Shown: positions 10,343 to 63,834 of the stretch, one piece after another
Layout of the letters: every line of letters begins with the position of its first letter
Position numbering within the stretch: position 1 is the first letter of the stretch
From: Desulfuromonadales bacterium
GTDB taxonomy: Bacteria > Desulfobacterota > Desulfuromonadia > Geobacterales > Pseudopelobacteraceae
NCBI GenBank assembly: GCA_013349405.1
Contig: DUZS01000001.1
Location: 1-64,000, forward strand
Direction: 5' to 3'
Length of the DNA: 64,000 nt
Made by a program: the position numbers and the translations under genes
Notes under the pieces: generated by a model
Told to the model about the DNA's origin: nothing
What the model saw: the letters and a program-made list of their open reading frames with translations, nothing else
The model's database searches: none

Positions 10343-10894
10343 ATGAAAAATATTGCACGTCTGTTATGCCTGTTTCTGATCTCTACCGTAATAGCCTGTA
10401 CCGGTGGAACTTCCAAAAAACCGGATGCAGCCTCATCCGGTTCTACAAAAAGCGGCACGGTAAAGCTCTATTCTGCCGCCACGAAAGGATTCATCATGAG
10501 CGATAAGGTCGTCAAAACCCCAGAAGAATGGCGTAAACAACTGACTCCGGAACAGTACCACGTTACCCGTGAACAAGGAACAGAACGGGCTTTCACCGGT
10601 GCCACCTGGAACAATCACGAAAACGGCACATACCAATGTGTCTGCTGCGGCAATGACCTGTACCATGCGGAACATAAGTACGAATCCGGTACCGGATGGC
10701 CGAGTTTCTGGCAGCCGATCGCCCCGGAAAACATCTCGACCCGTGCAGATAACAGCCTGTTCTCAAGGCGGACGGAAGTTGTCTGCAGCCGCTGTGACGC
10801 CCACCTGGGCCATGTATTTGAAGACGGGCCGAAGCCGACCGGGCTGCGCTACTGCATGAATTCTGCTGCCATGAAATTTGTAAAGTCGCCATGA
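10343..10894 (+). CDS. msrB: peptide-methionine (R)-S-oxide reductase, lipoprotein form
   Basis: MsrB reduces methionine-R-sulfoxide in proteins. The 183-residue sequence has an N-terminal lipoprotein signal with Cys19 in the lipobox (STVIAC), then a spacer and a complete MsrB domain (about 58-180). The structural zinc cysteines are C99/C102 and C148/C151, and the catalytic Cys171 lies in the RYCMNS motif. Export as a lipoprotein points to repair of envelope proteins. A GGAGG site precedes the ATG. Its stop overlaps the next gene by four bases, so it forms an operon with the FAD oxidoreductase and the TVP38 protein. Confidence 0.93.
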   Translation: MKNIARLLCLFLISTVIACTGGTSKKPDAASSGSTKSGTVKLYSAATKGFIMSDKVVKTPEEWRKQLTPEQYHVTREQGTERAFTGATWNNHENGTYQCVCCGNDLYHAEHKYESGTGWPSFWQPIAPENISTRADNSLFSRRTEVVCSRCDAHLGHVFEDGPKPTGLRYCMNSAAMKFVKSP

Positions 10895-12414
10895 CTTCTC
10901 CGGTCATGATACTGCCCGATACACCGGAGAACCGTGAGCTGACAGAAAATGTTCACCCGCCGAACTGGGTCAATCCCGAGCCTGCGCCATGTTACAACCT
11001 TGTGGTCATCGGTGGTGGCACAGCCGGTTTGATATCGGCTGCCGGTGCTGCCGGATTGGGGGGGAAGGTTGCCTTGATCGAACGGCATCTGATGGGTGGA
11101 GACTGTCTGAATGTCGGCTGCGTCCCCTCAAAGGGGGTTATCAGTGCATCCCGCGCCGTCCACCATGCCCGTAACTCTGCTGAATTTGGAGTAGTGGACG
11201 GCAAAAATCTGGGGTTTGACTTTGGTACCGCTATGGAGCGGATGCGCCGATTGCGCGCTGATATCAGTCATCACGACTCTGCCCGGCGTTTCCGAGACGA
11301 ACTGGGGATTGACGTATTTATTGGCCAGGGGAGCTTCAGCGGTCCCGACACAGTCGAGGTGGCGGGAAAGACGCTCCGCTTCAAAAAAGCCGCAATCTGT
11401 ACCGGTGCCCGCGCCGCCGCCCCTCCGATACCGGGGTTGGAAGAAGCCGGGTACCTTACCAACGAAACCTTATTTTCCCTTACCGAACTGCCACCCCGCA
11501 TGGCGGTTATCGGAGCCGGTCCCATCGGTTGCGAAATGGCACAATCATTTGCCCGCTTCGGCAGCCGCGTAACCTTGATCGAACTGGGCCCCCATATTCT
11601 TGGTCGTGAAGATGGCGATGCCGCTGAGATTCTCCACCATACGTTTATTCGTGAAGGTATCGACCTGCAGCTTGGGGTGAAGATCGTCGGAGTCGAAACA
11701 AGCGTCAGTGACAAAATTCTTCATCTTGAATGTGATGGCAAACGGATAGATGTGACTGCTGACGCCATATTGGTGGGAGTCGGACGCGCACCAAATCTTG
11801 ATGGTCTTGGTCTGGAGAAAGCGGGCGTCAAGTTCGACCGTTCTGGAGTCATAGTCAATGACAACCTGCAAACCTCGAATCCGAATGTCTATGCCGCCGG
11901 CGATATCTGCTTCCCGTTCAAGTTTACCCACACCGCCGACGCTCTGGCGCGCATTCTGATCGCCAATGCCCTCTTCATGGGGAGACAGAAGGTTTCTGCC
12001 CTTACTATTCCCTGGTGCACCTATACCGATCCTGAGATTGCTCACGTGGGGATGTACGAAGGTGATGCCAAAGACAAAGGGATTGAATTGACCACACTCA
12101 CCGTCCCGTTGTCGGAGATCGACCGGGCTGTTCTTGACGGTGAAACTGAGGGCTTTGCCCGGGTGCATCTGCGCAAGGGAACAGACAAAATTCTTGGTGC
12201 AACCATAGTCGCCCGTCATGCCGGGGAGATGATCAACGAGTTTTCACTGGCCATCACCAATGGTCTTGGAATATCTGCTATCGGCAAGACTATTCACCCG
12301 TATCCGACCCAGGCTGAGGTCATCAAGCGGCTGGCAGACGCCTATAACCGGACACGCCTTACGCCTTTTATCAAGAATCTGCTTTCCAGCTGGTTGAAGT
12401 GGCAGAGGGGATGA
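10891..12414 (+). CDS. FAD-dependent pyridine nucleotide-disulfide oxidoreductase (mercuric-reductase-like)
   Basis: 507 residues of the class I disulfide oxidoreductase family. After a 35-residue N-terminal extension come the FAD-binding GGGTAG (about 41-46), the redox-active pair Cys72/Cys77 in GGDCLNVGCVPSK, the NAD(P) site GAGPIGCE, and the dimerisation domain with HPYPTQAE. Homologues with this extension are often annotated as mercuric reductase, but they lack the N-terminal HMA domain and the C-terminal vicinal Cys pair of MerA; none is seen here. It is translationally coupled to msrB by ATGA and followed within 5 bases by a TVP38 gene, a combination often found fused in other bacteria. 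The substrate is unknown. Confidence 0.85.
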   Translation: MTSPVMILPDTPENRELTENVHPPNWVNPEPAPCYNLVVIGGGTAGLISAAGAAGLGGKVALIERHLMGGDCLNVGCVPSKGVISASRAVHHARNSAEFGVVDGKNLGFDFGTAMERMRRLRADISHHDSARRFRDELGIDVFIGQGSFSGPDTVEVAGKTLRFKKAAICTGARAAAPPIPGLEEAGYLTNETLFSLTELPPRMAVIGAGPIGCEMAQSFARFGSRVTLIELGPHILGREDGDAAEILHHTFIREGIDLQLGVKIVGVETSVSDKILHLECDGKRIDVTADAILVGVGRAPNLDGLGLEKAGVKFDRSGVIVNDNLQTSNPNVYAAGDICFPFKFTHTADALARILIANALFMGRQKVSALTIPWCTYTDPEIAHVGMYEGDAKDKGIELTTLTVPLSEIDRAVLDGETEGFARVHLRKGTDKILGATIVARHAGEMINEFSLAITNGLGISAIGKTIHPYPTQAEVIKRLADAYNRTRLTPFIKNLLSSWLKWQRG

Positions 12415-12418
12415 TTCT

Positions 12419-13108
12419 ATGAATATCAAAAAAATCGCACTGGCTCTGGTTGGTATCGCTGTCATCATACTATTCTTCTATTTTGACCTGCAGCGCTTTC
12501 TGACGCTGTCTGCTCTCAAGGCGAACCGCCAGACGCTGCTGGATTATTATGCCGCCCACACATTATTCATGGTGGCCGGCTTCATGGCGATCTACATTGT
12601 CCAGACCGCACTGTCGCTTCCCGGTGCCGCCATTCTGTCACTGGCAGCGGGTGCCATCTTTGGCTCCATAATGGGTACGGTCTACGCCAATATAGCCGCA
12701 ACGATCGGTGCTACCCTTGCTTTTCTCGTGACCCGCTATCTGCTGCGTGATGTTGTTCTGAACAAATTTGGCAGTAAACTGGAGGGTATGAACCGTGAGC
12801 TTGAAATGCGCGGCTTCAGCTATCTGCTCTTTCTACGGCTGGTACCGCTTTTCCCGTTCTTTTTGATCAACCTGGCCGCCGGACTGACCCGCCTTCCATT
12901 GCGGACTTTCTTCTTCGGCACGATGCTTGGTATCATTCCGGGGGGCTTTGTCTACGTCAATGCCGGTGCCAGTCTGGCAACTATCGATTCGCTCTCCGGC
13001 ATCGCCTCACCACGGGTGCTCGGCTCATTTGCCCTGCTCGGGCTGTTTGCACTGGTGCCGGTGTTGTACAACAAATTCAGGAACAAGAAAGTCGCAACAA
13101 CCGTATGA
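12419..13108 (+). CDS. TVP38/TMEM64 (VTT/DedA-like) family membrane protein
   Basis: 229 residues with about six hydrophobic segments and a conserved SNARE-associated/VTT core: FxxxYIVQTALSLPGAAILSLAAGAIFG, then FLVTRYLLRD and FLRLVPLFPFFLINLAAGLTRLP. VTT proteins are linked to lipid scrambling or export in the inner membrane; the role with the upstream oxidoreductase is not known. The ATG follows the previous stop by four bases, so it is the third gene of the msrB operon. Confidence 0.88.
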   Translation: MNIKKIALALVGIAVIILFFYFDLQRFLTLSALKANRQTLLDYYAAHTLFMVAGFMAIYIVQTALSLPGAAILSLAAGAIFGSIMGTVYANIAATIGATLAFLVTRYLLRDVVLNKFGSKLEGMNRELEMRGFSYLLFLRLVPLFPFFLINLAAGLTRLPLRTFFFGTMLGIIPGGFVYVNAGASLATIDSLSGIASPRVLGSFALLGLFALVPVLYNKFRNKKVATTV

Positions 13109-13916: not shown

Positions 13917-14021
13917 AAATTTACGGCCGCCACTTGTGGAGCAAGTACAATTTTTAATTTTATCAAGGCCCGTTCTTCAATCTGGCGCACCCGTTCACGT
14001 GATATCTGAAAATGATCTGCT
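13917..14021 (-). pseudogene. C-terminal remnant of a sigma factor (region 4.2)
   Basis: Reading the minus strand into the stop at 13917 gives ADHFQISRERVRQIEERA and then LIKLKIVLAPQVAAVNF. This is the helix-turn-helix of sigma-70-family region 4.2, as in RpoH or another heat-shock/primary-type sigma factor. Nothing upstream of it in this frame resembles a sigma factor; after about 30 recognisable residues the match ends at about 14021, where an Hsp20 remnant begins on the other strand. It is therefore a gene fragment. Confidence 0.75.
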
Positions 14022-14237
14022 ATACATGGAGAAAAGAAAATCGTACGAGAACAGAAAGGAGGTGATGGGTGCCTTATTTCAGAATGCAGGTACGGCGGTT
14101 TTTCCCGCACTGTCCAGTTGCCGTACGAGATAGATGAAAAAACGATTGCAGCGGACCTCAAACACGGGGTTCTTTCGATCCGGCTCCCCAAGCAGGACAT
14201 AGGCCGGCCGGCCCGCAATCGGGTGCCAATTTCCTGA
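14022..14237 (+). pseudogene. C-terminal remnant of a small heat-shock protein (Hsp20)
   Basis: A frame with no start codon reads IHGEKKIVREQKGG, then CRYGGFSRTVQLPYEIDEK, then TIAADLKHGVLSIRLPK up to the TGA at 14235-14237. These are the later strands of the alpha-crystallin domain, including the FSR..LP and (L)xxGVLxIxLPK motifs. The N-terminal half is missing; the sequence abuts a sigma-factor fragment at about 14021. About 71 codons survive without an internal stop, so the deletion may be recent. Confidence 0.82.
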
Positions 14238-14340: not shown

Positions 14341-14499
14341 ATGAATATAATCGTGACGAAGTGCGGCGTACAGGGTATGGTCGAGAAATATCCCCGGTTC
14401 TTTGAATATGGCGATGCGGAGAGTAGGCAGAAAGGGCTGGAACGATTGAGACGGCACTATCCGAAAGAAGATTCCGGCGTGAAAAATGAGGGAGGCTGA
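14341..14499 (+). CDS. small hypothetical ORF directly before the selenothioredoxin gene
   Basis: 52 codons beginning MNIIVTKCGVQGMVEK and ending one base before the thioredoxin ATG. It is charged and soluble-looking, with no recognised family. Another frame over the same DNA reads LQIALVMDLLETWNDEYN, which has the look of a chaperone-modulator (CbpM-like) tail, so this stretch may instead be part of the decayed heat-shock gene group to its left. Confidence 0.25.
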   Translation: MNIIVTKCGVQGMVEKYPRFFEYGDAESRQKGLERLRRHYPKEDSGVKNEGG

Positions 14500-14500
14500 T

Positions 14501-14944
14501 ATGAATACGGTAAGCTACATCGTGAAATGTCCATCATGCGGCACCGGCAACCGCATCCCGGCGGATAAAGAGGGGCTCAAGGGACATTGCGGCAGTTGCA
14601 AAGCAACCCTGCCGCCAATGTACTGTCACCCCCAGCAGATGACCGACCGGACCTTCGACTCATTCATCAGTTCCTATCCTGGTCCGGTGCTGGCAGAGTT
14701 CTGGGCCCCTACCTGACCGCATTGCCATACCTTCGCACCGGTGGTGCGAACTATTGCGGAAAGACTGGGCGGCCAGGCGGTAGTAATACAAATCAATACC
14801 CAGGACAATCCGAACCTGGCAGCCCGCTTCGGTATCCGCGGTATCCCGGCAATAGTACATATGAAGCAGGGACGCGTTATCGATCAACTTCCGGGAGCTC
14901 AAACGCTTGATGCCGTTATGTCCTGGTTCCGTCGGCAGGCATGA
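14501..14944 (+). CDS. selenocysteine-containing thioredoxin (TrxC-like, U-x-x-C)
   Basis: 147 residues if the TGA at 14714-14716 is read as selenocysteine. The N-terminus carries a zinc ribbon like thioredoxin 2 (Cys10/Cys13 and Cys30/Cys33). The thioredoxin fold follows: VLAEFWAPT-U-PHCHTFAP with Sec72 and Cys75 exactly at the two CxxC positions, then the normal downstream half, including GIRGIPAIVHMKQGR with the cis-Pro, to the TGA at 14942-14944. The frame is unbroken on both sides of the TGA. A SECIS-like hairpin starts just after it. GAGGGAGG lies 5 bases before the ATG at 14501. A plain reading would call two fragments; the exact position of the TGA argues against that. Confidence 0.85.
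14717..14759 (+). other. SECIS-like stem-loop for UGA recoding
   Basis: Directly after the TGA, an outer helix CCGCA/TGCGG (14717-14721 with 14755-14759) encloses a perfect apical hairpin TTCGCACC/GGTGCGAA (14732-14739 with 14743-14750) with a GGT apical loop at 14740-14742, about 24 bases from the TGA. Bacterial SECIS elements lie within the coding region just downstream of UGA and carry a G and U in a small apical loop, as here. Confidence 0.8.
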
Positions 14945-29048: not shown

Positions 29049-30878
29049 ATGAAATTTCCAAATCCGCACGATTTCAAGACAATTCCGGGGACAGAAGGGT
29101 GGGAAAGAATGTATCCGTACCAGTACCAGTTCGTCACCGACGATCCGGAGCGTAAGGAGTATGAGGAAAAAGCCTTCTGGTTTTATGATGGCCTTCATTA
29201 CCCTGAAGCGATCTATCCGTTTGACACGATTTGGGATGAGGCCTGGTACCTCGGGCTGTCTCAATACAACAACCGGATATTTCAGGTTCCGCCGGTGCGA
29301 GGTGTCGATCATCGTGTCATAAACGGCTACATCTATATCTCGCCGGTACCGGTGCTGGACGGGGCAGAGATCGGCAGCCGTGTCCCGAATTTCATGGAGC
29401 GCGCCGGCTTTTACTACAAAAACTGGAATGAGCTTGAGGCAAAATGGGAAGTCAAGATGAAAGCGCTTATCAAGCAGATCGAGGATCTGCCGATTTCACG
29501 TCTGCCTGATCTCGAAGATATCAGCGTCGTAACCGAGGGGCTTGGTGAATCCAAGGGATACCATCTCATCAAAACATATGATGATCTTATCAACATGGGC
29601 ATCCAGTGCTGGCAGTATCATTTCGAATTTCTCAACCTCGGCTATGCCGCGTATGTATTCTTCCTCGATTTTGTCCAGAAGCTGTTTCCAAGTGCGCCAC
29701 TGCAGCGCGTGACGCAGATGGTTGCAGGTATAGACGTTATCATGTACCGCTCCGACGATGAGTTGAAAAAACTGGCGAAGAAGGCCATAGAGCTGGGTGT
29801 CGATGGTGCTTTTACCTTCAACAAGGAGTGGGACGGCATCCAGGCAGAGCTGAAGACGACAGCCAAGGGACAGGAATGGCTTGCTGCTCTCGAAGTAGCC
29901 CGTTACCCCTGGTTCCATGTATCCACCGGCACCGGCTGGTCACATGCCGACAAAAGCTGGAATGACGATCTGAATATACCGATGTCCGGAATTGCGACCT
30001 ATATTGATCACCTGAAAAAGGGGTTGGAGATCGAACGTCCGATGGAGAAGGTTCGTGCCGAGCGCGATCGTATCATTGAAGAGTATCGCAGCCTGATCAA
30101 CACGGAAGAGGAGCGCAAAACCTTTGATGACCTGCTTAACACTGCCAAGACAGTCTTCCCCTATGTTGAAAATCACCTGTTCTACGTCGAGCATTGGTTT
30201 CATACGGTATTCTGGAAAAAGATGCGTGAAGTCTCGGCGATCATGGTAGAGCACAAGATGATCAATGACGTCGAGGATATCTGGTATCTGCGCCGCGATG
30301 AGATCAAGCAGGCGCTGTGGGATATGGTTACCGCCTGGGCCACCGGGGTCAAGCCGCGCGGTATTAAGGTCTGGCCGAAGGAGATTGACTGGCGCAAGGG
30401 GGTCATGCAGAAATTCCAGGAATGGAGTCCGCCGCCTGCCATCGGTACCGCGCCGGATGTAATCCAGGAGCCGTTCACCATCGTGCTGTGGGGCGTGACG
30501 AACTCCTCCATTTCAGACTGGGCAGAGGTCACGGACAATGCCGATCCGGACAGCATTACCACTCTGAAAGGCTTTGCCGGCAGTCCCGGTATCGTTGAGG
30601 GTAAGGCACGGGTCTGCCGCACCGCAGATGATATCCGTCTGTTACAGGATGGTGAGATATTGGTTGCACCGACCACTTCCCCCTCCTGGGCGCCGGCCTT
30701 TGCCAAGATTAAAGCGGCAATTACCGATGTTGGCGGTGTCATGAGCCACGCGGCGATTGTCTGCCGGGAGTATGGTCTGCCGGCGGTGGTAGGTACCGGA
30801 CATGGTACGAAGATCATCAAGACCGGTATGATGCTCCACGTCGATGGTTCTTCCGGCGTTATTACCATCCAGCGCTGA
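29049..30878 (+). CDS. ppsA: phenylphosphate synthase-like subunit A (PEP-utilising swivel domain)
   Basis: 609 residues, close to PpsA of anaerobic phenol degraders. The C-terminal part (about 505-605) is the PEP-synthase-like phosphohistidine domain with GGVMSHAAIVCREYGLPAV; His567 is the likely phosphorylated residue. The first 480 residues form the aromatic-substrate region seen in PpsA but not in PEP synthase. With PpsB and PpsC, the enzyme transfers the beta-phosphate of ATP to phenol, giving phenylphosphate plus AMP and phosphate. A GGGAGGAG site precedes the ATG, and a sigma-54 promoter lies upstream. Other phenol-like or enol substrates cannot be excluded. Confidence 0.85.
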   Translation: MKFPNPHDFKTIPGTEGWERMYPYQYQFVTDDPERKEYEEKAFWFYDGLHYPEAIYPFDTIWDEAWYLGLSQYNNRIFQVPPVRGVDHRVINGYIYISPVPVLDGAEIGSRVPNFMERAGFYYKNWNELEAKWEVKMKALIKQIEDLPISRLPDLEDISVVTEGLGESKGYHLIKTYDDLINMGIQCWQYHFEFLNLGYAAYVFFLDFVQKLFPSAPLQRVTQMVAGIDVIMYRSDDELKKLAKKAIELGVDGAFTFNKEWDGIQAELKTTAKGQEWLAALEVARYPWFHVSTGTGWSHADKSWNDDLNIPMSGIATYIDHLKKGLEIERPMEKVRAERDRIIEEYRSLINTEEERKTFDDLLNTAKTVFPYVENHLFYVEHWFHTVFWKKMREVSAIMVEHKMINDVEDIWYLRRDEIKQALWDMVTAWATGVKPRGIKVWPKEIDWRKGVMQKFQEWSPPPAIGTAPDVIQEPFTIVLWGVTNSSISDWAEVTDNADPDSITTLKGFAGSPGIVEGKARVCRTADDIRLLQDGEILVAPTTSPSWAPAFAKIKAAITDVGGVMSHAAIVCREYGLPAVVGTGHGTKIIKTGMMLHVDGSSGVITIQR

Positions 30879-30915
30879 TTTCAGTGATACTAGTAGCAAT
30901 GAGGAGAAGGTGGCC

Positions 30916-32064
30916 ATGAATACTGTTACAAATACTATTGAAAGGGTCAGTAATCCCCGAACTGGGCGTATGTCTGCACTTTCACCGGTTACAGGGCTGC
31001 CGATGGTCTGCTGGCTGGAGGAGTGCCGCAAGGAATCAGTGGATCTGGTCGGAGGAAAATGTTCTTCACTCGGAGAGCTGATCAATGCCGGAGTGCGCGT
31101 ACCTCCCGGCTTCGCCCTGACCACGGAGGGGTATCGGCGCTTTATGGCCGATGCCGGCATAGACAGGGAAGTGCAATCCATGCTGGTCGGTCTCGATATT
31201 CAGGATATGGAGGCCCTGGAGAATACCAGCAGTGCCATTCGTGAACTGATTGAAGCGCAGCCGTTTTCCACGGAGATAGAGGATCTGGTCGCCGAGAGCT
31301 ACCGGAAACTTTCCGTCAGAAGTTGTGTGCCTGCGGTTCAGGTGGCGGTACGCTCCAGCGCAACTGCTGAGGATCTTCCCGGCGCAAGTTTTGCCGGACA
31401 GCAGGACACCTATCTCTGGGTTCGCGGCACCGACGAGGTGCTGTATAACATGCGCCGCTGCATCTCCAGCCTCTATACCGGGCGAGCCATCGCCTACCGG
31501 ATCAATCAGGGCTTTGGAGAAGAGTTGATAGCAATCAGCGTCGGGGTACAGAAAATGGCCAATTCTTTTACCGCCGGCGTCATGTTCACACTCCATCCGA
31601 CCAATGGCGATCGTTCGGTGATTGTGATCGACTCCAATTACGGCTTTGGTGAATCAGTTGTTTCGGGAGAGGTGACACCGGACAACTTCGTTGTCAACAA
31701 GATTACGCTGGATATCATCGAACGCACCATCTCTCAGAAGGATATCTATTATACCGTAGATACGAAGACCCAGGAGTCGCGGAAAATAGAGGTGCCGTTC
31801 GAGCGCCAGAAGGTGCAGTCACTGGTAGACGACGAAATCACCGAACTGGCCTGGATGGGCAAGCAGATTGAAAAGCATTATGGTCGCCCCATGGATATCG
31901 AGTGGGCGGTGGACAAGGACCTCCCCTTCGGCGGTAACATCTTTATTCTGCAGGCCCGCCCGGAAACGGTCTGGAGCCAGAAGCAGCAGGCGGTGGCAAA
32001 AGCGGGGGTTTCCGCAATGGATTACATCCTGTCCAGCATGCTTGAAGGGAAACGATTGAAGTAG
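30916..32064 (+). CDS. ppsB: phenylphosphate synthase-like subunit B (ATP-binding domain of PEP synthase type)
   Basis: 382 residues from the ATG at 30916 (GAGGAGAAGG upstream). It matches the ATP-grasp/pyruvate-phosphate-dikinase N-terminal domain: LVGGKCSSLGELINAGVRVPPGF near the start, AVRSSATAEDLPGASFAGQQDTYL, and the C-terminal DIEWAVD...ILQARPETVW. In phenylphosphate synthase this subunit binds ATP and passes phosphate to the histidine of subunit A. The split into two genes, rather than one PEP synthase, is the hallmark of the pps type. It lies 37 bases after ppsA. Confidence 0.87.
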   Translation: MNTVTNTIERVSNPRTGRMSALSPVTGLPMVCWLEECRKESVDLVGGKCSSLGELINAGVRVPPGFALTTEGYRRFMADAGIDREVQSMLVGLDIQDMEALENTSSAIRELIEAQPFSTEIEDLVAESYRKLSVRSCVPAVQVAVRSSATAEDLPGASFAGQQDTYLWVRGTDEVLYNMRRCISSLYTGRAIAYRINQGFGEELIAISVGVQKMANSFTAGVMFTLHPTNGDRSVIVIDSNYGFGESVVSGEVTPDNFVVNKITLDIIERTISQKDIYYTVDTKTQESRKIEVPFERQKVQSLVDDEITELAWMGKQIEKHYGRPMDIEWAVDKDLPFGGNIFILQARPETVWSQKQQAVAKAGVSAMDYILSSMLEGKRLK

Positions 32065-32124
32065 TGGCGGTACATAAATCGAAGCTATCACGCTTCACAA
32101 ATTAAAACGCAAAGGAGAGTAACA

Positions 32125-33630
32125 ATGAGTAAACCAGAAATTTCCCCAATCAATGACATCCGCAGCTACATCGCAGCACTGGATGCCCACGGTATATTAC
32201 ATCGCGTCACAACCGAGGTGGACTCCAAGTTTGAGCTCGCCCACGTTTCCAAGGTGAACGAAGAGCAGAAGGGGCCGGCGCTGCTCTATGAGAATGTCAA
32301 AGGGCATACTATTCCGGTATTCACCAGCGCTTTCACGACACCACAGCGGATCGCCATCTGCCTGGAGCAGGACCCGTCCCTTACCATGTGTCAGCTGTCG
32401 CGGAAATGGATGGAGCTGACCACCAAGAAGATGATCAAACCGGTATTTGTCGACAATCCGGCGGTCATGGAAAACATCATTCCGGAGGCTGATGTAGACC
32501 TGGATAATTTCCCCGCCCCCTGGTTTTATCCGGATGATGGTGGGCGTTTCTTCGGCACCTCCGGCTACCTGGTGACCCAGGACCCGGATACCGGCTGGAC
32601 CAACCTCGGCACCTATCGCTCACAGGTTCTCGGCAAAAAAATCCTTGGCTCACAGATAATCAGCGGCAAGCATGGCGATTTTCATATGAAGAAGTATCAG
32701 GAGCGGGGTGAGAAGATGCCGGTCGCCTACGTTGTAGGGGGGGATCCGATACTGTTTTTGGCAAGTTCCACTCTGGTCAGTGCCCAGACCGACGAATATG
32801 ACGTGGGGGGCGCGCTGCGCGGTCGCCCGATTGAAGTATTCAAGTCGGACCTTACCGGTTTGACACTGCCGGCTAACGCCGAGATCATCGTTGAGGGATG
32901 GATGGACCCGAACGAGCTGATGGAAGAAGGACCCTTTGGCGAATACACCGGCTACTACTCCGGCAACAAGATGAAGGATTTTCCGAAACCGGTGATCCGT
33001 GTGAGCCGCATCATCCACCGCACCAAGCCGGTCTTCTGGGCAACCACGGTCGGCAAGCCGATCAACGATACCCATATGGTTCAGTCGATCAACCGGACGG
33101 CGACCCTCTGGCATGATCTGGAAACAGCGAAGGTGCCGGGCATTCAGAGCGTTTACTTCCCGGCTGCGGCCACCGGTCGTTTCTGGGTCATTGTCTCTGT
33201 CAAGCAGATGTATCCGGGCCACTCGAACCATGTCGCCGATGCCGTGATGGGGAGCACCACCGGGCATTACGGCGTCAAAGGTATCATCATCGTTGACCAT
33301 GATATCGAGGCAGATGATATGGATCGTGTCTGGTGGGCGCTGGCCACCCGCTATGACCCGAAGCGCTCGACCCAGATCATCAATCGCGGTCGCTCAACCC
33401 CGCTTGACCCCGGCCTGCCGATCGAAGCTCGCGATATCGTCAGCCGTATTATCATGGATGCCACGACACCGTACGAGTGGAAAAACAAGCCGAACGAGAT
33501 ATTCATGGACCGTGAGGTGCTGCAGAAGGTTTCCGACCGCTGGAACGAGTACGGTTTTTCCGGAGCAAGTCCCGTGGCTGATATGATTACGCGACTGACC
33601 AAGCCGGTAGTCGGGAAAAAGGGCAAGTAG
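32125..33630 (+). CDS. UbiD-family prFMN-dependent (de)carboxylase, phenylphosphate-carboxylase-like
   Basis: 501 residues of the UbiD family, which use prenylated FMN for reversible decarboxylation. Family motifs include LGTYRSQVLGKK, GPFGEYTGYYSGNK (with the catalytic-region Glu), and the C-terminal SRIIMDATTPYEW. In phenol degraders, PpcA/PpcB carboxylate phenylphosphate to 4-hydroxybenzoate, together with small subunits PpcC and PpcD, none of which is found here. A single UbiD subunit may be enough, or the substrate differs from phenol. A UbiX gene that can make the cofactor lies three genes downstream. Confidence 0.88.
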   Translation: MSKPEISPINDIRSYIAALDAHGILHRVTTEVDSKFELAHVSKVNEEQKGPALLYENVKGHTIPVFTSAFTTPQRIAICLEQDPSLTMCQLSRKWMELTTKKMIKPVFVDNPAVMENIIPEADVDLDNFPAPWFYPDDGGRFFGTSGYLVTQDPDTGWTNLGTYRSQVLGKKILGSQIISGKHGDFHMKKYQERGEKMPVAYVVGGDPILFLASSTLVSAQTDEYDVGGALRGRPIEVFKSDLTGLTLPANAEIIVEGWMDPNELMEEGPFGEYTGYYSGNKMKDFPKPVIRVSRIIHRTKPVFWATTVGKPINDTHMVQSINRTATLWHDLETAKVPGIQSVYFPAAATGRFWVIVSVKQMYPGHSNHVADAVMGSTTGHYGVKGIIIVDHDIEADDMDRVWWALATRYDPKRSTQIINRGRSTPLDPGLPIEARDIVSRIIMDATTPYEWKNKPNEIFMDREVLQKVSDRWNEYGFSGASPVADMITRLTKPVVGKKGK

Positions 33631-33639
33631 TTCGTTAAT

Positions 33640-33724
33640 CCCCTCTCCCCAGCGGGGGGAGGTTGGGAGGGGGGATGTTTCTCGCGGACACCCCCCTCCC
33701 TACCCTCCCCCTCCTGGGGAGGGG
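33640..33724. repeat. GC-rich palindromic repeat between ubiD- and UPF0261-type genes
   Basis: CCCCTCTCCCC...GGGGGGAGG on the left and CCCCCCTCCC...TGGGGAGGGG on the right form nested hairpins that together make one large imperfect palindrome. The arms resemble the element inside uvrB. Confidence 0.75.
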
Positions 33725-33752
33725 ACTTGTTGCTTGAAAGGGAGTACCGAAC

Positions 33753-35006
33753 ATGACCACGAAAAAAGGCATCGTCATCATCTGCAACCTTGACACCAGG
33801 GGCGAGGATATCATCTTTGTCAAACATCTGATTGAGTCGCGCGGACACAATGCCTGGTTCCTTGATTTCAGCATGGAGGAACCACCACCCTTTGCCGGTG
33901 ATATCACCTGCCAGCAGGTCGCAGAGCGGGGCGGCATGACGATAGAGGCGGTGCGCGAATGTTACCGCTCTGATCGCGACAGGGCGATGGAAAATCAGAT
34001 TAAGGGTGCGACGCTGATCGTTGCCGACATGGTGAAAGAGGGAAAAATTCAGGGGGTCTTCGGGGTCGGCGGCGGCACATCATCGCTGGTCGGTACCAGC
34101 GTCATGAAGAGCCTGCCCTTCGGCATGCCCAAACTCATGGCCTCCCCCATGGCGGCGCATCCGGTCTATGTCGGCAAGTACGTTGGCACCTGTGACATCA
34201 CCATGCACCACACGGTGCTTGATATCGTGAAGATGAATCCGCTCCTGAAGGCGCAGATCATCAACGCCGTCGGCGCCATCTGCGGCATGGTCGAGATGAC
34301 GCAGGGGACCGACTTTGTCTTTGAAAAGCCGTGCGTTGCCATATCGTCGTTCGGTTTCGGCGAGATGGCGGTTCAGGCGGCGCTCGGCATGCTGGAAGAG
34401 GCCGGGTTTACCCCGATTGTCTGCCACGCTCAGGGCAAGGGTGACAAGGCGATGGAGGAGATGATCCGGAGCGGCGCTTTCCATGGGGTTCTGGATATCT
34501 GTACCGGCGGCATCATGGAAAACCTGTTCAACGGCAACCGCGATCCCGGTCCGGATCGCCTCGAAGCGGCGGTTGCCACCGGGATACCGATGGTGCTCGC
34601 TCCCTGTGGCCTCGATATTCTTTCCTACGGCGGCCGGGCTGACATGCTGGAGAAAACCAAAGACCGGCCGCAGTATGTGCAGGACTCCCTGCGCGTTCAG
34701 GTCCGGACAACCGCCGATGAGTTGCGCCAGGCTGCTGATGTTATCGCCGAGCGGCTCAACCGGGCCACGGGGGAGTGGACGTTCCTGATCCCGCTCAAGG
34801 GGTGGTCGTCGCAAGATATTGAGGGGCGTATAATCTACGACCCTGTTGCCGATGCCGCCTTCGTCACGCGGTTAAAGGAAAAATTGGCCGAGCCCGATCG
34901 GGTCAAAGAGGTTGACCTGCACCTGTACACCGCTGAATTTGCCCGTGTTGCTGTTGATGAATTTGTCCGCCTGCATGGTAAGGAGAGCCGCACATGCCAA
35001 TGTTAG
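33753..35006 (+). CDS. UPF0261/Tm-1-like ATP-binding family protein
   Basis: 417 residues of the UPF0261 family, relatives of the N-terminal domain of the tomato Tm-1 protein. Two Rossmann-like halves are visible: GIVIICNLDTRGEDIIFVK, GVFGVGGGTSSLVG, DITMHHTVLDIV, then GFGEMAVQAALGMLEEAGF and FHGVLDICTGGI. The biochemical role of bacterial members is unknown; some occur with gallate- or TIM-barrel-type genes. Here it lies inside the phenylphosphate-type operon and overlaps the CBS gene by 13 bases, so it probably takes part in the same pathway. It is not a known member of the phenol pathway. Confidence 0.83.
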   Translation: MTTKKGIVIICNLDTRGEDIIFVKHLIESRGHNAWFLDFSMEEPPPFAGDITCQQVAERGGMTIEAVRECYRSDRDRAMENQIKGATLIVADMVKEGKIQGVFGVGGGTSSLVGTSVMKSLPFGMPKLMASPMAAHPVYVGKYVGTCDITMHHTVLDIVKMNPLLKAQIINAVGAICGMVEMTQGTDFVFEKPCVAISSFGFGEMAVQAALGMLEEAGFTPIVCHAQGKGDKAMEEMIRSGAFHGVLDICTGGIMENLFNGNRDPGPDRLEAAVATGIPMVLAPCGLDILSYGGRADMLEKTKDRPQYVQDSLRVQVRTTADELRQAADVIAERLNRATGEWTFLIPLKGWSSQDIEGRIIYDPVADAAFVTRLKEKLAEPDRVKEVDLHLYTAEFARVAVDEFVRLHGKESRTCQC

Positions 35007-35428
35007 TTCGTGACTGGATGAAAAAAACTCCGACAAAAATACCGAGCGATACACTTGTCACGGAAGCAAAACGTCTTCTGATCGACAATAACCTGAACGC
35101 GGTACTTGTCGTCGATAATGAGCGTTTGCGGGGTCTGATAACGCGGCACAACATCATGCGCATGAGTCACTATGTCATGCGCACTCAAAATGCCGATGAA
35201 GTCAGTTTCTTTGTTGACCGCCTCAAAGTGAGGGATATAATGGTGCGCAAGCCGGCAACCGTTCAGGCTGATGACACCATACGGCAATGCCTGAAGTATG
35301 GAAACGAACTGATGGTGGCCCAATTCCCGGTATTGGAAGGTGAGCAGGTCGTCGGCATCATCTCGGCCAAAGAGATTTTTCAGCTGGCAGCCCACTTTGC
35401 CGGTGCGCTGGATGAAGCGGCTGCGTAA
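34994..35428 (+). CDS. ppsC: two-CBS-domain protein, phenylphosphate synthase gamma (PpsC)-like
   Basis: 144 residues consisting of a CBS pair: VRDWMKKTPTKIPSDTLVTEAKRLL...DNNLNAVLVVD and VRDIMVRKPATVQADDTIRQCLKY...QFPVLEGEQVVGIIS. In phenylphosphate synthase, PpsC is a CBS protein that stimulates the A and B subunits several-fold, so its presence here supports the pps assignment. Its start overlaps the UPF0261 gene, giving translational coupling. CBS pairs usually bind adenine nucleotides, which would suit control by ATP/AMP. Generic CBS proteins are common, so the subunit assignment rests on context. Confidence 0.72.
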   Translation: MPMLVRDWMKKTPTKIPSDTLVTEAKRLLIDNNLNAVLVVDNERLRGLITRHNIMRMSHYVMRTQNADEVSFFVDRLKVRDIMVRKPATVQADDTIRQCLKYGNELMVAQFPVLEGEQVVGIISAKEIFQLAAHFAGALDEAAA

Positions 35429-35435
35429 ACGGCAA

Positions 35436-35507
35436 CCCCTCCAAACCTCCCCTTGTCAAGGGAGGCTTAAAGACTTCCCCCCTGACAGGGGGGACTAAGG
35501 GAGGTTA
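35436..35507. repeat. palindromic repeat before ubiX
   Basis: Pairs such as AACCCCTCC...GGGAGG and CCCCCCTGACAGGGGGG (tight hairpin) plus a terminal CTAAGGGAGGTTAG form nested hairpins in the ppsC-ubiX gap. It belongs to the same general class as the elements in uvrB and at 33640-33724 but has a different core. Confidence 0.65.
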
Positions 35508-35551
35508 GATTCAGGTGTTTCACGGATATAATTATAGAGAGGTGTAACTCC

Positions 35552-36151
35552 ATGACTCTTCCATTGGTAGTGGCAATAACCGGCGCATCGGGCGTCATCT
35601 ACGGGGTGGAAATGCTGCGCGTGCTGAAGGAACTCGGCCAGGAGACCCATCTCATCGTCAGTGACGCCGCCCGCAAAAATTTTGCCATTGAAACCGAATA
35701 CAGCTATGACGAGGTCGTGGCAATGGCAAGCGTCGTGTACGACAACAGCGATATCGGAGCTGCCGTTGCCAGCGGCTCGTTCCGCACCCGTGGCATGATT
35801 GTCGCTCCCTGCACGGTGAAAACGCTCTCGGCCATCGCCAATTCATTTACCTATAACCTGATCGTGCGTGCCGCTGATGTCAGCCTCAAGGAGCGCCGGA
35901 CACTGGTGCTGATGGTGCGTGAAACGCCGCTCCACAAGGGACACCTCGATCTTATGTCGCGCGCCGCCGATTATGGTGCCGTGATTCTGCCGCCGATGCC
36001 GGCGTTCTACCACAAGCCGGAGTCGCTCATGGATATTATCCATCAGAGTATCGGCAAGGCACTTGATCAGGTCGGCATCGAACACAATCTTTTTAAACGC
36101 TGGAGCGGTCACAACTCTGACAAGCTGGGTAATTCCACTCACGCAGCATAA
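35552..36151 (+). CDS. ubiX: UbiX family flavin prenyltransferase
   Basis: 199 residues with the UbiX flavodoxin-like fold: VVAITGASGVIYGVEML at the start, SGSFRTRGMIVAPCTVKTLSAIANSF, and LMVRETPLHKGHLDLM. It joins dimethylallyl phosphate to FMN to make prFMN, the UbiD cofactor. Its place in the operon with a UbiD-type gene fits this role. An AGAGG ribosome-binding site precedes the ATG. The DUF120-HAD flavin gene on the other side of the regulator could contribute FMN. Confidence 0.92.
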   Translation: MTLPLVVAITGASGVIYGVEMLRVLKELGQETHLIVSDAARKNFAIETEYSYDEVVAMASVVYDNSDIGAAVASGSFRTRGMIVAPCTVKTLSAIANSFTYNLIVRAADVSLKERRTLVLMVRETPLHKGHLDLMSRAADYGAVILPPMPAFYHKPESLMDIIHQSIGKALDQVGIEHNLFKRWSGHNSDKLGNSTHAA

Positions 36152-36175
36152 CCTAACGAGGAAAAGGAGATTAAA

Positions 36176-37138
36176 ATGAACATTGTTATCTGTACCCGTT
36201 TTATTCACACCATCTGTATTTCCGCACTCTTGTCCCTGTTGATCGCCTCCACCGGCTTGGCAGGTGGATTGCCTGGTAGTGGAGGACACTACCCCAACGG
36301 GGCTGAGGATTTTATGGTCGGCGCCCTGCCCCCTCCCGGGACATACCTGGTGAACTACATGTTGCTGGTCCAGAAGGATTCTTTGAAAAATAACTCCGGA
36401 AGTACTGCTGCAGACATTAACTTCAGTGTATTTGCCGAGGTGCCGCGCTTGATCTATGTCAGCCCCTACTCGCTGTTCGGAGCAAGTCTGGCGGCCCAGG
36501 TATTCATACCCTACTACAGTGCTGATTTAACTGCTCCTGCTCTTGGCAATCTCAATGTTAATGATAAAGGAATGGGCGATATCATCTTCAGTCCACTGGT
36601 TTTGGGCTGGCACTTCAGCCCGGAGCTCCACGCTGTTGCCGCGCTGGATATATGGGCCCCGACCGGTAACTATGACAAGACCAACCTTGCCACACAGGTT
36701 CTTTCCAAAAACCACTGGACCTTTGAGCCGGTACTGGCCGTATCCTATTTAAAAGACGGTTTCGATGCCTCCATCAAGTTGATGTACGACTTCAATACTG
36801 AAAACGATGATTATCTAATGCCTGGTCCTCCAGGAAGCCCAACCGTAAAACTTAGTCCCGGTCAGGAGTTTCATATGGACTGGGCTTTGGGATACAGCGC
36901 TAAGAATGGCCTGACTGGAGGCCTGGTGGGCTACAACTACTGGCAAACTACCGATAATGAAGTCAACGGCAGCAATGCTTCAGACGGCAAAAGCCAGGTT
37001 GGTGGCATCGGTGTCGGCCTCAAATACTGGCCAAAGCAGGGTCCATTCAGCGTAACTCTCAAGCAGTACTGGGAGTATAACGCCAAAAACATGCCTACCG
37101 GACCGCAGTCCGTGTTCAAGATCATCTACGCTTTTTAG
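36176..37138 (+). CDS. outer-membrane channel, Phenol_MetA-degradation/SphA-like family
   Basis: 320 residues: signal peptide (about 1-30), then GGHYPNGAEDFMVGALPPPGTYLVNYMLL, typical of the Phenol_MetA_deg barrel family, and amphipathic strands ending in a terminal aromatic residue (FKIIYAF). The family occurs with genes for phenol, alkylbenzene and other hydrophobic substrates and is thought to form an outer-membrane path. It supports uptake of an aromatic compound for this operon. A GGAGAT site precedes the ATG. An intrinsic terminator follows about 35 bases downstream. Confidence 0.85.
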   Translation: MNIVICTRFIHTICISALLSLLIASTGLAGGLPGSGGHYPNGAEDFMVGALPPPGTYLVNYMLLVQKDSLKNNSGSTAADINFSVFAEVPRLIYVSPYSLFGASLAAQVFIPYYSADLTAPALGNLNVNDKGMGDIIFSPLVLGWHFSPELHAVAALDIWAPTGNYDKTNLATQVLSKNHWTFEPVLAVSYLKDGFDASIKLMYDFNTENDDYLMPGPPGSPTVKLSPGQEFHMDWALGYSAKNGLTGGLVGYNYWQTTDNEVNGSNASDGKSQVGGIGVGLKYWPKQGPFSVTLKQYWEYNAKNMPTGPQSVFKIIYAF

Positions 37139-40412: not shown

Positions 40413-40736
40413 ATGAAAGACCTTCATAAAATATTTTCGGAATTCAAGGGAGATTTCCCTGCGGTGTATGCCGGTTATGAGTCTTTAGGAGCTGAGATAC
40501 ATGCGGCGGGCGGCCCTCTGCCCGAAAAAACCCGCTGGTTATTGAAGATAGCGGTTTCCGGGGCAAGTCGTCATATGTCAGCGCTTGAAACTCATATCAC
40601 CAGGGGGAGAGAAGCCGGACTGAGCGAAGATGAAATCAGGCACGCCCTGCTTCTGCTGTTGCAAACCACGGGGTTTCCAACGTTTATGGAAGCCTATGCC
40701 GTTTTCAAGAGAATGAGCGGGGCCGCAGGAAATTGA
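40413..40736 (+). CDS. carboxymuconolactone decarboxylase (AhpD-like) family protein lacking redox cysteines
   Basis: 107 residues from the ATG at 40413 (AAAGGAG upstream). The CMD/AhpD core is recognisable (TRWLLKIAVSGASRHMSALETHITRGREAGLSEDEIRHALLLL), but the CxxC pair of AhpD is replaced, with ASRHMSALETH at that place and no cysteine in the protein. It is therefore unlikely to be a peroxidase partner; some CMD proteins are true decarboxylases. Its last bases overlap the TTG start of yqeC. Confidence 0.75.
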   Translation: MKDLHKIFSEFKGDFPAVYAGYESLGAEIHAAGGPLPEKTRWLLKIAVSGASRHMSALETHITRGREAGLSEDEIRHALLLLLQTTGFPTFMEAYAVFKRMSGAAGN

Positions 40737-41533
40737 GCGACTGCTGCTATTCGCTCGAACAGATACTGTGCGGTGAGCCACACGGGATAGTCAGTTTTGT
40801 CGGCGCGGGCGGCAAAACCAGCCTGCTGTTCCATCTGGCACACCAGCTTGCCTGCTCCGGTAAACGGGTGCTGACAACCACGACCACCAAAATCTTCGTC
40901 CCCACTCCTGACCAATCGCACACTGTTATCATTGATGCCGACCCGGAAGCGGTCATAGCGCGGACGTCAGCCCTGCTCTCCGAAGCCGGGCATATTACCG
41001 CCGCCGCTGCCCGCATGGCTGAAAGCGGCAAGCTTCAGGGGTTTGCTCCCGAAGCCATCAGCGTCTTGCAAAAATCGGGGCTGTTCGACTGGATTCTGGT
41101 TGAAGCCGACGGCGCTGCCCGCCGCTCCCTCAAAGCACCTGCGGATCACGAACCGGTTATTCCAGCTGAAACAAGCGTGCTGGTTGCCGTGGCGGGACTT
41201 GATCTGATCGGGGAGCCGCTATCTGAGCAGCTTGTGTTCCGCTCGACGCGTGCGGGTGACATAATGGGACTGAACATCGGAGAAACGATCACAGAGCCGT
41301 CGCTGGCACGCCTCTTCGCACATCCTCTCGGTTCATTCAAAGGGGCCCCACCACAGTCCCGACGCTTCATTTTTCTCAATAAGGCAGACTCTTCCAAAAG
41401 GCGCTATTGTGGTGAGAAGGTGGCTCAACTCCTGAGCCGAATGGCATCACCACCGGTCGAAGCAGTGATAGTCGGCCAGGCGCTTGGCGTGCTGCGTATC
41501 CATGCGCTGCATCATGTAATGGTGCAGACGTGA
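40733..41533 (+). CDS. yqeC: selenium-dependent molybdenum hydroxylase accessory protein YqeC
   Basis: 266 residues. The P-loop GAGGKTSLL is at about 24-32, and the family-typical VLTTTTTKIFVP, ILVEADGAARRSLKAP and TEPSLARLFAHPLGSFKGAP blocks follow. YqeC occurs with labile-selenium molybdenum hydroxylases of the xanthine dehydrogenase family and is thought to help insert the cofactor. The start is TTG at 40733, within the previous stop. It is followed by a MocA-like gene that overlaps by 4 bases. No hydroxylase is in the window. Confidence 0.87.
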   Translation: MSDCCYSLEQILCGEPHGIVSFVGAGGKTSLLFHLAHQLACSGKRVLTTTTTKIFVPTPDQSHTVIIDADPEAVIARTSALLSEAGHITAAAARMAESGKLQGFAPEAISVLQKSGLFDWILVEADGAARRSLKAPADHEPVIPAETSVLVAVAGLDLIGEPLSEQLVFRSTRAGDIMGLNIGETITEPSLARLFAHPLGSFKGAPPQSRRFIFLNKADSSKRRYCGEKVAQLLSRMASPPVEAVIVGQALGVLRIHALHHVMVQT

Positions 41534-42147
41534 ACCGCGTTCCCCGGATCACCGGTATTGTCCTGGCCGCCGGCACCGGGAGCCGCATGGGACGGACAAA
41601 GCAGCTTCTCCCCTTCCGGGGGCAGGCGCTTCTCGAATGTGTTGTTGGCAATGCCCGTGCCTCAAGCCTTGATCGAATCATTGTTGTACTCGGCTTTCAG
41701 GCTGACGCAGTGGCGCAACTTTTTGCCGCGAATGACGTAACCGTAGTGGTGAATCCCGCGTACGAAAGCGGCCAGAGTACTTCTCTCAAAGCCGGCCTGC
41801 ACGCAGTCACCCAGGAAGCTGATGCCGTGCTTTTCTTGCTCGGAGATCAGCCGCTTGTCACCCCTGAGACAATTAACCGTATCATCAGTCACTATGAAAG
41901 GTTTCCGCACTGTCCCGTTGTGGTGCCCGTCTTTGAAGGGAGGCGGGGCAATCCGGCCCTCTTCAGTCGGGAAACCTTTGCCCGGATCGAAGCCCTGAGT
42001 GGCGATTGCGGTGCACGCTCTCTGTTTGCTGAATATGCCGGGAATATTCTCGAAGTTACCGTTAATGATCGGTCAATTCACATGGATATTGATACGGAAG
42101 AAGATTATCACAGACTACTGGAGCATGAAGATCATGCCGGGACCTGA
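41530..42147 (+). CDS. mocA: molybdenum cofactor cytidylyltransferase (MocA-like)
   Basis: 205 residues of the NTP-transferase-like fold: ITGIVLAAGTGSRMGRTKQLLPF at the N-terminus, IIVVLGFQADAV, VVVNPAYESGQSTSLKAGL, LLGDQPLVTPETI and GRRGNPALFSRE. MocA adds CMP to the molybdopterin cofactor, giving the MCD form used by xanthine dehydrogenase-family enzymes, including 4-hydroxybenzoyl-CoA reductase. Its GTG start at 41530 overlaps yqeC by four bases. MobA-type GMP transferase is less likely given the YqeC partner. Confidence 0.85.
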   Translation: MNRVPRITGIVLAAGTGSRMGRTKQLLPFRGQALLECVVGNARASSLDRIIVVLGFQADAVAQLFAANDVTVVVNPAYESGQSTSLKAGLHAVTQEADAVLFLLGDQPLVTPETINRIISHYERFPHCPVVVPVFEGRRGNPALFSRETFARIEALSGDCGARSLFAEYAGNILEVTVNDRSIHMDIDTEEDYHRLLEHEDHAGT

Positions 42148-46132: not shown

Positions 46133-46188
46133 CAATAAAAAAGCCGGATCGCGGGCTATCGAGTAATTGATAGTTCGGCGACCCGGCT
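46133..46188 (-). terminator. intrinsic terminator overlapping the GEMM aptamer
   Basis: On the minus strand GCCGGGTCGC and GCGATCCGGC form a ten-base stem with one G-U pair, with an inner CTATC/GATAG helix, followed by TTTTTTATT. The 5' strand of this stem is also the 3' part of the aptamer, so ligand binding and termination exclude each other. Confidence 0.8.
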
Positions 46189-46254
46189 GTCTCATTGAGA
46201 TCCTTGGCTTTCCGTCGCATCCTCGCGGATGGTTTAGTAGTATCGCTATCACAA
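46160..46254 (-). promoter_or_regulatory. GEMM-I (c-di-GMP / cGAMP class) riboswitch
   Basis: The minus strand reads GATAGCGATA, then AAACCATCCGCGAGGATGCGACGG split as a P2 hairpin (CATCC-GCGA-GGATG with a GNRA-type loop), GGAAAGCC, GGATCTC...GAGAC, and AGCCGGGTCGCCGAACTATC. The P1 arms GATAG-CGA and TCG-CCGAA-CTATC pair. The GNRA tetraloop, the AAAGCC and the AGCCGG...CGCC receptor and P3 strands match GEMM-I. Whether it binds c-di-GMP or 3',3'-cGAMP cannot be read by eye. It is about 70 bases upstream of the membrane-protein gene. Confidence 0.82.
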
Positions 46255-63721: not shown

Positions 63722-63819
63722 CTCTCATCTTTGCCTTGCGGCAGGATTTAGCACCTGACGTCAAAAGACCGGTTGCTGTGGTTTCGCAGGGCCTTTTCCC
63801 TCCACCACTCTCGATAAGC
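63722..63819 (-). promoter_or_regulatory. SAM-I (S-box) riboswitch
   Basis: The minus strand reads CTTATC, GAGAGTGGTGGAGGGA, GGCCC, GAAACCACAGCAACC, AGGTGCTAAATCC and AAGATGAGAG. These are the consensus blocks of the SAM-I aptamer, including the GGTGGAGGGA/GCAACC core and GGTGC-AATCC-type P3/P4 elements. P1 pairs CTTATC with GATGAG. Located upstream of metX, it should turn off expression when SAM is plentiful. Confidence 0.93.
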
Positions 63820-63834
63820 AGGTTTTGTTGCCAG

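What the first reader, a model, noticed from the sequence alone, without database searches (positions are those of the whole stretch)
14501..14944. Thioredoxin whose CxxC is encoded as TGA-x-x-Cys, with a SECIS-like hairpin: a selenothioredoxin
Seen: an in-frame TGA (14714-14716) replaces exactly the first active-site cysteine (WAPT-U-PHC), both flanks are unbroken thioredoxin sequence, and a perfect hairpin with a GGT apical loop at about 24 bases follows. Known: bacterial selenocysteine insertion needs such a hairpin just after UGA. Inference: the reading as two pseudogene fragments is wrong; it is a zinc-ribbon TrxC-like selenoprotein. Selenium use elsewhere in the window (YqeC) fits.
Basis: partly seen in the sequence, partly recalled or inferred. 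Interest (0 to 1): 0.85.

Follow-up and report, generated by a model that had tools for sequence, protein, structure and literature searches.

The report
Selenothioredoxin gene in a Geobacter relative
A thioredoxin gene that looks broken by a stop codon is really a selenocysteine-containing thioredoxin of a kind already known from Geobacter, though the genes that cells need to read that codon were not found in this particular genome assembly.

Summary
In detail: TGA 14714-14716 replaces the first active-site cysteine of an otherwise open zinc-ribbon thioredoxin frame, and a hairpin (8 bp, GGU loop, 23 nt after the UGA) meets the published bSECIS rules. It is no random pseudogene: of 40 orthologue rows in 58 genomes, 29 hold a TGA; in the 36 copies held, the TGA sits at this codon in 25, all able to form the hairpin, which 10 of 11 Cys copies lack; dN/dS is 0.09-0.21.

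Yet its formate dehydrogenase also has an in-frame TGA and is fully constrained after it, and even EF-Tu was found only as a fragment. So the sel genes are missing from the assembly (likelier) or very recently lost.

New context: in several relatives the gene ends an Hsp20-DnaJ-HtrA stress island that seems to move between species; here fragments remain. Geobacter selenothioredoxins were listed in 2006 (PMC1794560): a new member of a known kind.

The parts
14501..14944 (+). Selenothioredoxin coding sequence, 147 residues when UGA is read as Sec (UPHC active site)
   Evidence: best of five AlphaFold2 models mean pLDDT 90.9 (others 90.9, 88.1, 82.8, 67.7), residue 72 just before helix 73-88
14491..14495 (+). 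Ribosome-binding-site-like GGAGG
   Evidence: sequence
14528..14599 (+). Zinc ribbon CPSC...CGSC codons (residues 10-33)
   Evidence: PF21352, 31.1 bits against cut-off 27.1
14714..14716 (+). In-frame UGA at the first CxxC position (residue 72)
   Evidence: one TGA inside 29 of 40 orthologue rows, at this codon in all 25 TGA copies whose sequence was held
14732..14750 (+). bSECIS-like hairpin: 8-bp stem, GGU loop at 14740-14742
   Evidence: rules read in PMC13188914 section 5
14383..14490 (+). Remnant of the C-terminal end of the ~200-aa protein that precedes the gene in intact islands (86% identical over 36 aa to L052)
14022..14234 (+). Hsp20 remnant (residues 93-163 of 163 of the second island Hsp20 of L060, 82% identical)
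13919..14023 (-). C-terminal fragment of a sigma-factor-like protein found near the island in L051 (80% identical over 35 aa; sigma name by my reading)

Best explanation
The locus is a genuine selenothioredoxin gene. The UGA at 14714-14716 encodes selenocysteine as the attacking residue of a UxxC active site in a zinc-ribbon thioredoxin; a bSECIS hairpin just downstream recruits SelB with Sec-tRNA; a reductase would then keep the selenenylsulfide reduced and the protein would reduce disulfides, probably during heat or protein-folding stress, since several relatives' copies end an Hsp20-Hsp20-DnaJ-MerR-(PsiE)-HtrA island. Shown: UGA position, conserved UGA and hairpin, purifying selection, predicted fold, island context in relatives. 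Inferred: Sec insertion, redox role, stress role. The sel genes are absent from this assembly; I think it more likely (about 2 to 1) that they lie in sequence missing from the assembly than that they were lost very recently.
For: One TGA inside 29 of 40 orthologue rows, among them 13 of the 14 rows at 70% identity or more; at codon 72 in all 25 TGA copies held. Energy of the 24-nt hairpin stretch -9.6 to -14.9 kcal/mol in 25 TGA copies and 0 to -9.4 in 11 Cys copies, no overlap. Stem paired in 120 of 120 cells of 15 distinct rows (17 of the TGA copies given), changes only to G-U. Hairpin codons more uniform at silent positions than 127 of 128 other 7-codon windows. Window copy against 17 relatives (15 distinct): dN/dS 0.09-0.21. 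23 of 25 TGA genomes have selB and tRNA-Sec over cut-off. FdhA of this genome has UGA, no other stop, and dN/dS 0.038-0.068 downstream of it, as among relatives. YqeC present. The assembly demonstrably lacks genes that must exist: EF-Tu is only a start fragment at a contig end, though tuf is usually duplicated and so a special case.
Against: No selA, selB, selC or selD above cut-off in the assembly. The place beside fdhA where G003 and G028 keep selB-selA-selC is closed up without them in mid-contig, and the place beside a mutase gene where G003, G030, G019 and G033 keep selD-yedF-mnmH lacks them in mid-contig. All 7 amino-acid changes unique to the window copy lie after the UGA (0 before, 7 after; other 15 copies pooled 48 and 37; Fisher p = 0.004, chosen after seeing the data), and against the nearest copy L051 dN/dS is 0.25 after and 0.06 before the UGA: both could mean relaxed constraint after loss of decoding. 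Over 45 nt the fold energies of TGA and Cys copies overlap (-12.4 to -22.6 and -2.5 to -23.7), and in 5 of 25 TGA copies the best 45-nt fold is not the hairpin. No two-sided covariation in the stem.
Confidence: 0.85

Rival explanations
1. The organism has just lost the Sec trait; the gene and FdhA are orphan UGA genes that now give truncated products and are at the very start of decay.
For: Four sel genes not found, and the two places where relatives keep them are empty in large contigs; lack of Sec genes is frequent here: 9 of 58 genomes, this one included, have neither selB nor tRNA-Sec over cut-off; 0/7 skew of unique changes and dN/dS 0.25 after the UGA against L051; upstream island genes already decayed.
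Against: FdhA shows no relaxation over the 858 codons after its UGA despite dS near 1 to the nearest copies, so loss would have to fall in a small last part of the branch. Two other Sec-less relatives, G010 and G017, have a TGC FdhA instead. The sel cluster moves: near relative G031 also lacks it beside fdhA but has it elsewhere.
Confidence: 0.3
2. An ordinary pseudogene: a TGC-to-TGA point mutation in a TrxC gene.
For: Assembly has no sel genes above cut-off; flanking island genes are remnants.
Against: A TGA in 28 other orthologue rows, at the same codon and with the hairpin in the 24 others held; low dN/dS.
Confidence: 0.03
3. UGA is read through by a near-cognate tRNA to give a low-activity product, independent of Sec.
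For: UGA followed by C is a leaky context in E. coli (recalled, no call).
Against: Would put a non-nucleophile at the catalytic position; does not explain the hairpin that follows the TGA state.
Confidence: 0.03

Closest known systems
Selenothioredoxins of Geobacter metallireducens, G. sulfurreducens and G. uraniireducens (Zhang et al. 2006, PMC1794560, table passage seen)
   Same: Thioredoxin selenoprotein in Geobacter, listed with SelD and FdhA among the selenoproteins
   Different: I did not compare sequences with those exact records; in the window genome no sel gene was found, whereas those genomes are listed as having selenoproteins including SelD
Thioredoxin (Trx) selenoprotein family, PF00085, UxxC (PMC13188914 and PMC9312934, table passages seen)
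   Same: PF00085 match, UxxC with Sec first, bSECIS downstream
   Different: This copy has an N-terminal zinc ribbon; whether the listed example has one was not checked
Thioredoxin 2 / TrxC (NF008229, PF21352; PDB 7d6l)
   Same: Zinc ribbon plus thioredoxin domain; best PDB hit is Thioredoxin 2, 84.9 bits
   Different: Below the TrxC cut-off (102.9 of 125 bits); UPHC in place of a CxxC with Cys first
[quoted passage not shown]
   Same: Small Hsp20, thioredoxin, PsiE-like and DegP/HtrA genes together, transmitted laterally
   Different: The Geobacter island adds DnaJ and a MerR-type regulator; ClpK, YfdX, HdeD and KefB were not seen among the seven L060 ORFs scanned with Pfam, and no wider search for them was made; its thioredoxin is UGA-coded; no common descent was tested

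Membership tests
Bacterial selenoprotein gene, Trx family | In-frame UGA at the position of a conserved redox Cys, homology on both sides | tested here: met
Bacterial selenoprotein gene, Trx family | bSECIS: 3-9 nt loop, 4-16 bp stem, G in first two loop positions, 16-37 nt spacing, MFE at or below -7.5 | tested here: met
   3-nt GGU loop, 8 bp, 23 nt, -11.5 kcal/mol for the 24-nt stretch; bSECISearch itself not run
Bacterial selenoprotein gene, Trx family | TGA conserved in other organisms, Cys in homologues | tested here: met
   29 with one TGA and 11 without a stop, of 40 orthologue rows; codon 72 checked in 36 held copies: 25 TGA, 11 TGC/TGT
Bacterial selenoprotein gene, Trx family | Sec machinery (selA, selB, selC, selD) in the same genome, needed for the protein to be made | tested here: inconclusive
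   None above cut-off in the 96.06% complete assembly; selB and selC over cut-off in 23 of 25 TGA genomes
Bacterial selenoprotein gene, Trx family | Selenium in the protein | not testable with these tools
   needs 75Se labelling or mass spectrometry
TrxC (NF008229) | Curated score cut-off 125 bits | tested here: not met
   102.9 bits
TrxC-like, zinc-ribbon thioredoxin | Four-Cys ribbon PF21352 | tested here: met
   31.1 bits against 27.1
tLST / locus of heat resistance | sHsp20, Trx, PsiE-like and DegP genes together | tested here: met
   in L060 by Pfam, in L058 and L062 by similarity; in the window only fragments remain
tLST / locus of heat resistance | ClpK, YfdX, HdeD, KefB modules and common descent | not tested
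   only seven ORFs of L060 were scanned; no sequence comparison with tLST was made

The most novel reading that the evidence does not exclude
The window species is a snapshot of Sec-trait loss: selA, selB, selC and selD are truly gone, while at least two UGA genes (selenothioredoxin, FdhA) are still whole, one of them a passenger of a stress island that moves between species and so can carry a selenocysteine codon into hosts that cannot read it.
Probability: 0.3. Interest if true: 0.6.

Novelty: new member of a known kind. Interest (0 to 1): 0.36.

Why it matters
An annotation that takes UGA as a stop would split this gene and lose the catalytic half. The family gives a natural experiment: the hairpin stays with TGA and mostly goes with Cys. 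If the sel genes are really gone, the genome shows what happens in the first moments after a lineage loses the 21st amino acid; if not, it shows how metagenome assemblies can hide the Sec machinery. That a selenoprotein gene rides on a moving stress island suggests that its spread is limited to hosts with Sec decoding, which could be tested.

Tried and rejected
Pseudogene reading: rejected on conserved TGA, hairpin and low dN/dS. tRNA genes in the window or in the fdhA stretch L088: none by ARAGORN, no tRNA-Sec by Rfam in L088. The seven own selB-model matches are all below cut-off; I looked at three: a 554-aa GTPase next to a CysD-like ORF, read by me as CysN, a TypA-like 601-aa ORF, and a 35-residue EF-Tu-like start at a contig end; the other four were not identified. 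Best own selD match, 84.4 bits: read by me as ThiL. Contig ends: up to 5 kb from the ends of the 60 contigs of G000 (116 loci, 556,524 bases) were searched with ORFs of 11 relatives' sel and selD loci; no sel gene among the rows at over 50% identity, some flanking genes. Covariation: none two-sided. Plasmids: 5 of 72,556 records hold a relative at E 1e-20 or better, all under 60% identity; three are annotated trxC. Literature: searches; of the papers only section 5 of PMC13188914 was read whole, otherwise passages or listings. No title or abstract start listed describes a selenothioredoxin in a stress island, which is no proof of absence. The Mann-Whitney p (8.9e-7) treats related copies as independent (36 rows, 33 distinct) and is too small. 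L060 has two further stops (codons 41 and 83); it was kept in the hairpin, dN/dS and unique-change counts and left out of alignments A2 and A3. The script printed some residues wrongly because of a string replacement; hairpins and codons are unaffected. One search failed on a stop codon and was rerun. only polled the structure job.

Full report
WHAT IS THERE. The frame 14501-14944 is open except for TGA 14714-14716, which takes the place of the first Cys of the thioredoxin CxxC. Read with TGA as Sec it is a 147-residue zinc-ribbon thioredoxin: PF00085 78.7 bits over residues 45-143, PF21352 31.1 bits, TrxC model 102.9 bits, below its cut-off of 125, best solved relative Thioredoxin 2, 7d6l. 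AlphaFold2 with 22 sequences gives a best model of mean pLDDT 90.9 (the five range from 67.7 to 90.9) and places residue 72 just before the helix 73-88; a product that ends at the UGA would lack the second half of the domain.

THE HAIRPIN. Fifteen bases after the UGA comes an 8-bp stem with a GGU loop (14732-14750). It meets the published bSECIS rules as I read them in PMC13188914 section 5. By itself it is not improbable: 11% of synonymous recodings with the family's codons give as long a stem. I compared 36 orthologue copies whose sequence I held (30 loci and 6 of the 18; 11 of the others match contigs in length and one is a distant thioredoxin; 10 orthologue rows had no locus, one of which I take to be L051). 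The 25 TGA copies fold at -9.6 to -14.9 kcal/mol in the 24-nt stretch and the 11 Cys copies at 0 to -9.4; the one Cys copy at -9.4 (G045, L031/L065) keeps a fossil of the hairpin. Over 45 nt the energies overlap, and in 5 of 25 TGA copies (L025, L058, L029, L062, L047) the best 45-nt fold is another one, so the claim rests on the local hairpin. All 8 pairs stand in 15 distinct rows, changes being only to G-U; there is no two-sided covariation. Silent sites in the hairpin codons are more uniform than in 127 of 128 other windows of that size.

RELATIVES. In 58 genomes of the order (own included), 40 rows at 49-99% identity are orthologues by my reading of the table (170 bits or more; the other rows, 77 bits or less, I take for a different thioredoxin); 29 have one TGA, 11 none. 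They lie in 36 genomes, 25 of them with a TGA copy. A tree of 36 proteins puts one Cys clade of 10 and one lone Cys copy (G045) among Sec copies, two changes of state at the fewest. Window copy dN/dS against 17 relatives (15 distinct) is 0.09-0.21 over the whole gene, 0.06-0.24 before and 0.09-0.25 after the UGA.

SEL GENES. In the window's assembly (3.43 Mb, 60 contigs, 96.06% complete) selA has no match, selB seven matches below cut-off, best 114.4 of 242.25 bits, tRNA-Sec none over cut-off, best 41.2 bits against 47, selD best 84.4 bits against 125, an ORF that I read as ThiL. In the 58 genomes selA is over cut-off in 48, selB in 49, tRNA-Sec in 49, selD in 55. The nine without selB and tRNA-Sec over cut-off are G000, G004, G006, G010, G014, G017, G019, G023, G033; of these two have a TGA copy (G000, and G033 on a 3.5-kb contig of a 92% complete genome), two a copy without TGA, five no orthologue row. 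So 23 of 25 TGA genomes have selB and tRNA-Sec.

GAP OR LOSS. Beside fdhA, G003 and G028 have ferredoxin gene - selB - selA - tRNA-Sec (with other genes between) - fdhA, while G000 has the ferredoxin gene directly next to the molybdenum-cofactor riboswitch and fdhA in the middle of a 198-kb contig (ferredoxin by my reading). But G031, one of the two nearest relatives by a TypA-like protein (98%), also lacks sel there and has it elsewhere. The selD-yedF-mnmH block lies near a mutase gene in G003, G030, G019 and G033 (yedF, mnmH and mutase by my reading); in G000 the mutase gene lies at about 224 kb of the 255-kb window contig without that block. Against loss: G000's FdhA has the UGA, 92% identity to G007's FdhA, no other stop, and dN/dS after the UGA of 0.038-0.068 against 11 relatives, as among those relatives, whereas Sec-less G010 and G017 have TGC there. 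YqeC, a selenium-trait marker, is in the window. G035 shows that an assembly at 99% can lack selD over cut-off while it has selA, selB and selC. EF-Tu-like matches of about 190 bits, found in most relatives, are absent from G000, which has only the start of such a gene at a contig end: genes that must exist are missing here, although duplicated tuf genes are a known assembly problem (recalled). I put missing sequence at about two to one over recent loss. The 0-to-7 skew of window-unique changes is the best sign of relaxation, but it is post hoc, and two other copies (L029 9:1, L062 1:6) are also skewed.

THE ISLAND. In L052, L060 and L062 the gene ends a run Hsp20 - Hsp20 - DnaJ - MerR_2 - trypsin/PDZ protease - ~200-aa protein - selenothioredoxin, with PsiE before the protease in L060 and L062; L058 has the same run with PsiE, with the protease in two pieces and no MerR ORF listed; Pfam names come from L060. 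In the window only the end of the second Hsp20 (14022-14234), the end of the ~200-aa protein (14383-14490) and a sigma-factor-like fragment remain. In L054, L056 and L057 the gene sits near OsmC and Cons_hypoth698 proteins instead, and L055, L061 and L063 show no clear island. A 3,438-bp stretch is 100% identical between G042, of another family, and G016; 10,438 bp are identical between L049 and L050, whose contigs match G003 and G031 in length, while these genomes' TypA region is 84% identical. This points to recent transfer; for pairs of metagenome bins misbinning cannot be excluded. The set resembles the tLST of beta- and gamma-proteobacteria, whose genes include sHsp20, trx, a PsiE-like orf14 and degP (PMC8290217, passages seen); descent was not tested.

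KNOWN OR NEW. Zhang et al. 2006 list thioredoxin among the selenoproteins of three Geobacter species (PMC1794560, passages seen), so the selenothioredoxin is known. What I did not find in the searches made is a selenothioredoxin tied to a stress island.

Noticed in passing
window 29049-37138: Possible anaerobic phenol-degradation cluster (my reading): PEP-utiliser and PPDK_N proteins, UbiD, UPF0261, flavoprotein, Phenol_MetA_deg.
   Followed up: no
window 40733-42147: YqeC (TIGR03172, 197.5 bits) followed by a MocA-type cytidylyltransferase: a selenium-trait marker in an assembly without selD over cut-off.
   Followed up: partly
window 46174-46248 and 63722-63820, - strand: c-di-GMP-I and SAM riboswitches over gathering score.
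   Followed up: no
window 10343-13108: MsrB, FAD oxidoreductase and a VTT-domain membrane protein in a row upstream of the locus.
   Followed up: no
L060, codons 41 and 83 of the orthologue: Two further stops in the orthologue of a bin whose contig title gives coverage 2.3: decay or sequencing error.
   Followed up: no
G035 (L158): A near relative has selA, selB, tRNA-Sec and a UGA FdhA but no selD over cut-off.
   Followed up: no
L132, L133 (G010, G017): Relatives without selB and tRNA-Sec carry FdhA with TGC in place of TGA.
   Followed up: partly
L031/L065 (G045): A Cys copy inside the Sec clade keeps the hairpin, a fossil SECIS.
   Followed up: partly
L007 1480-1606 (end of G000 contig C40): Start of an EF-Tu-like gene cut off by the contig end; no full EF-Tu match in this assembly.
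   Followed up: partly
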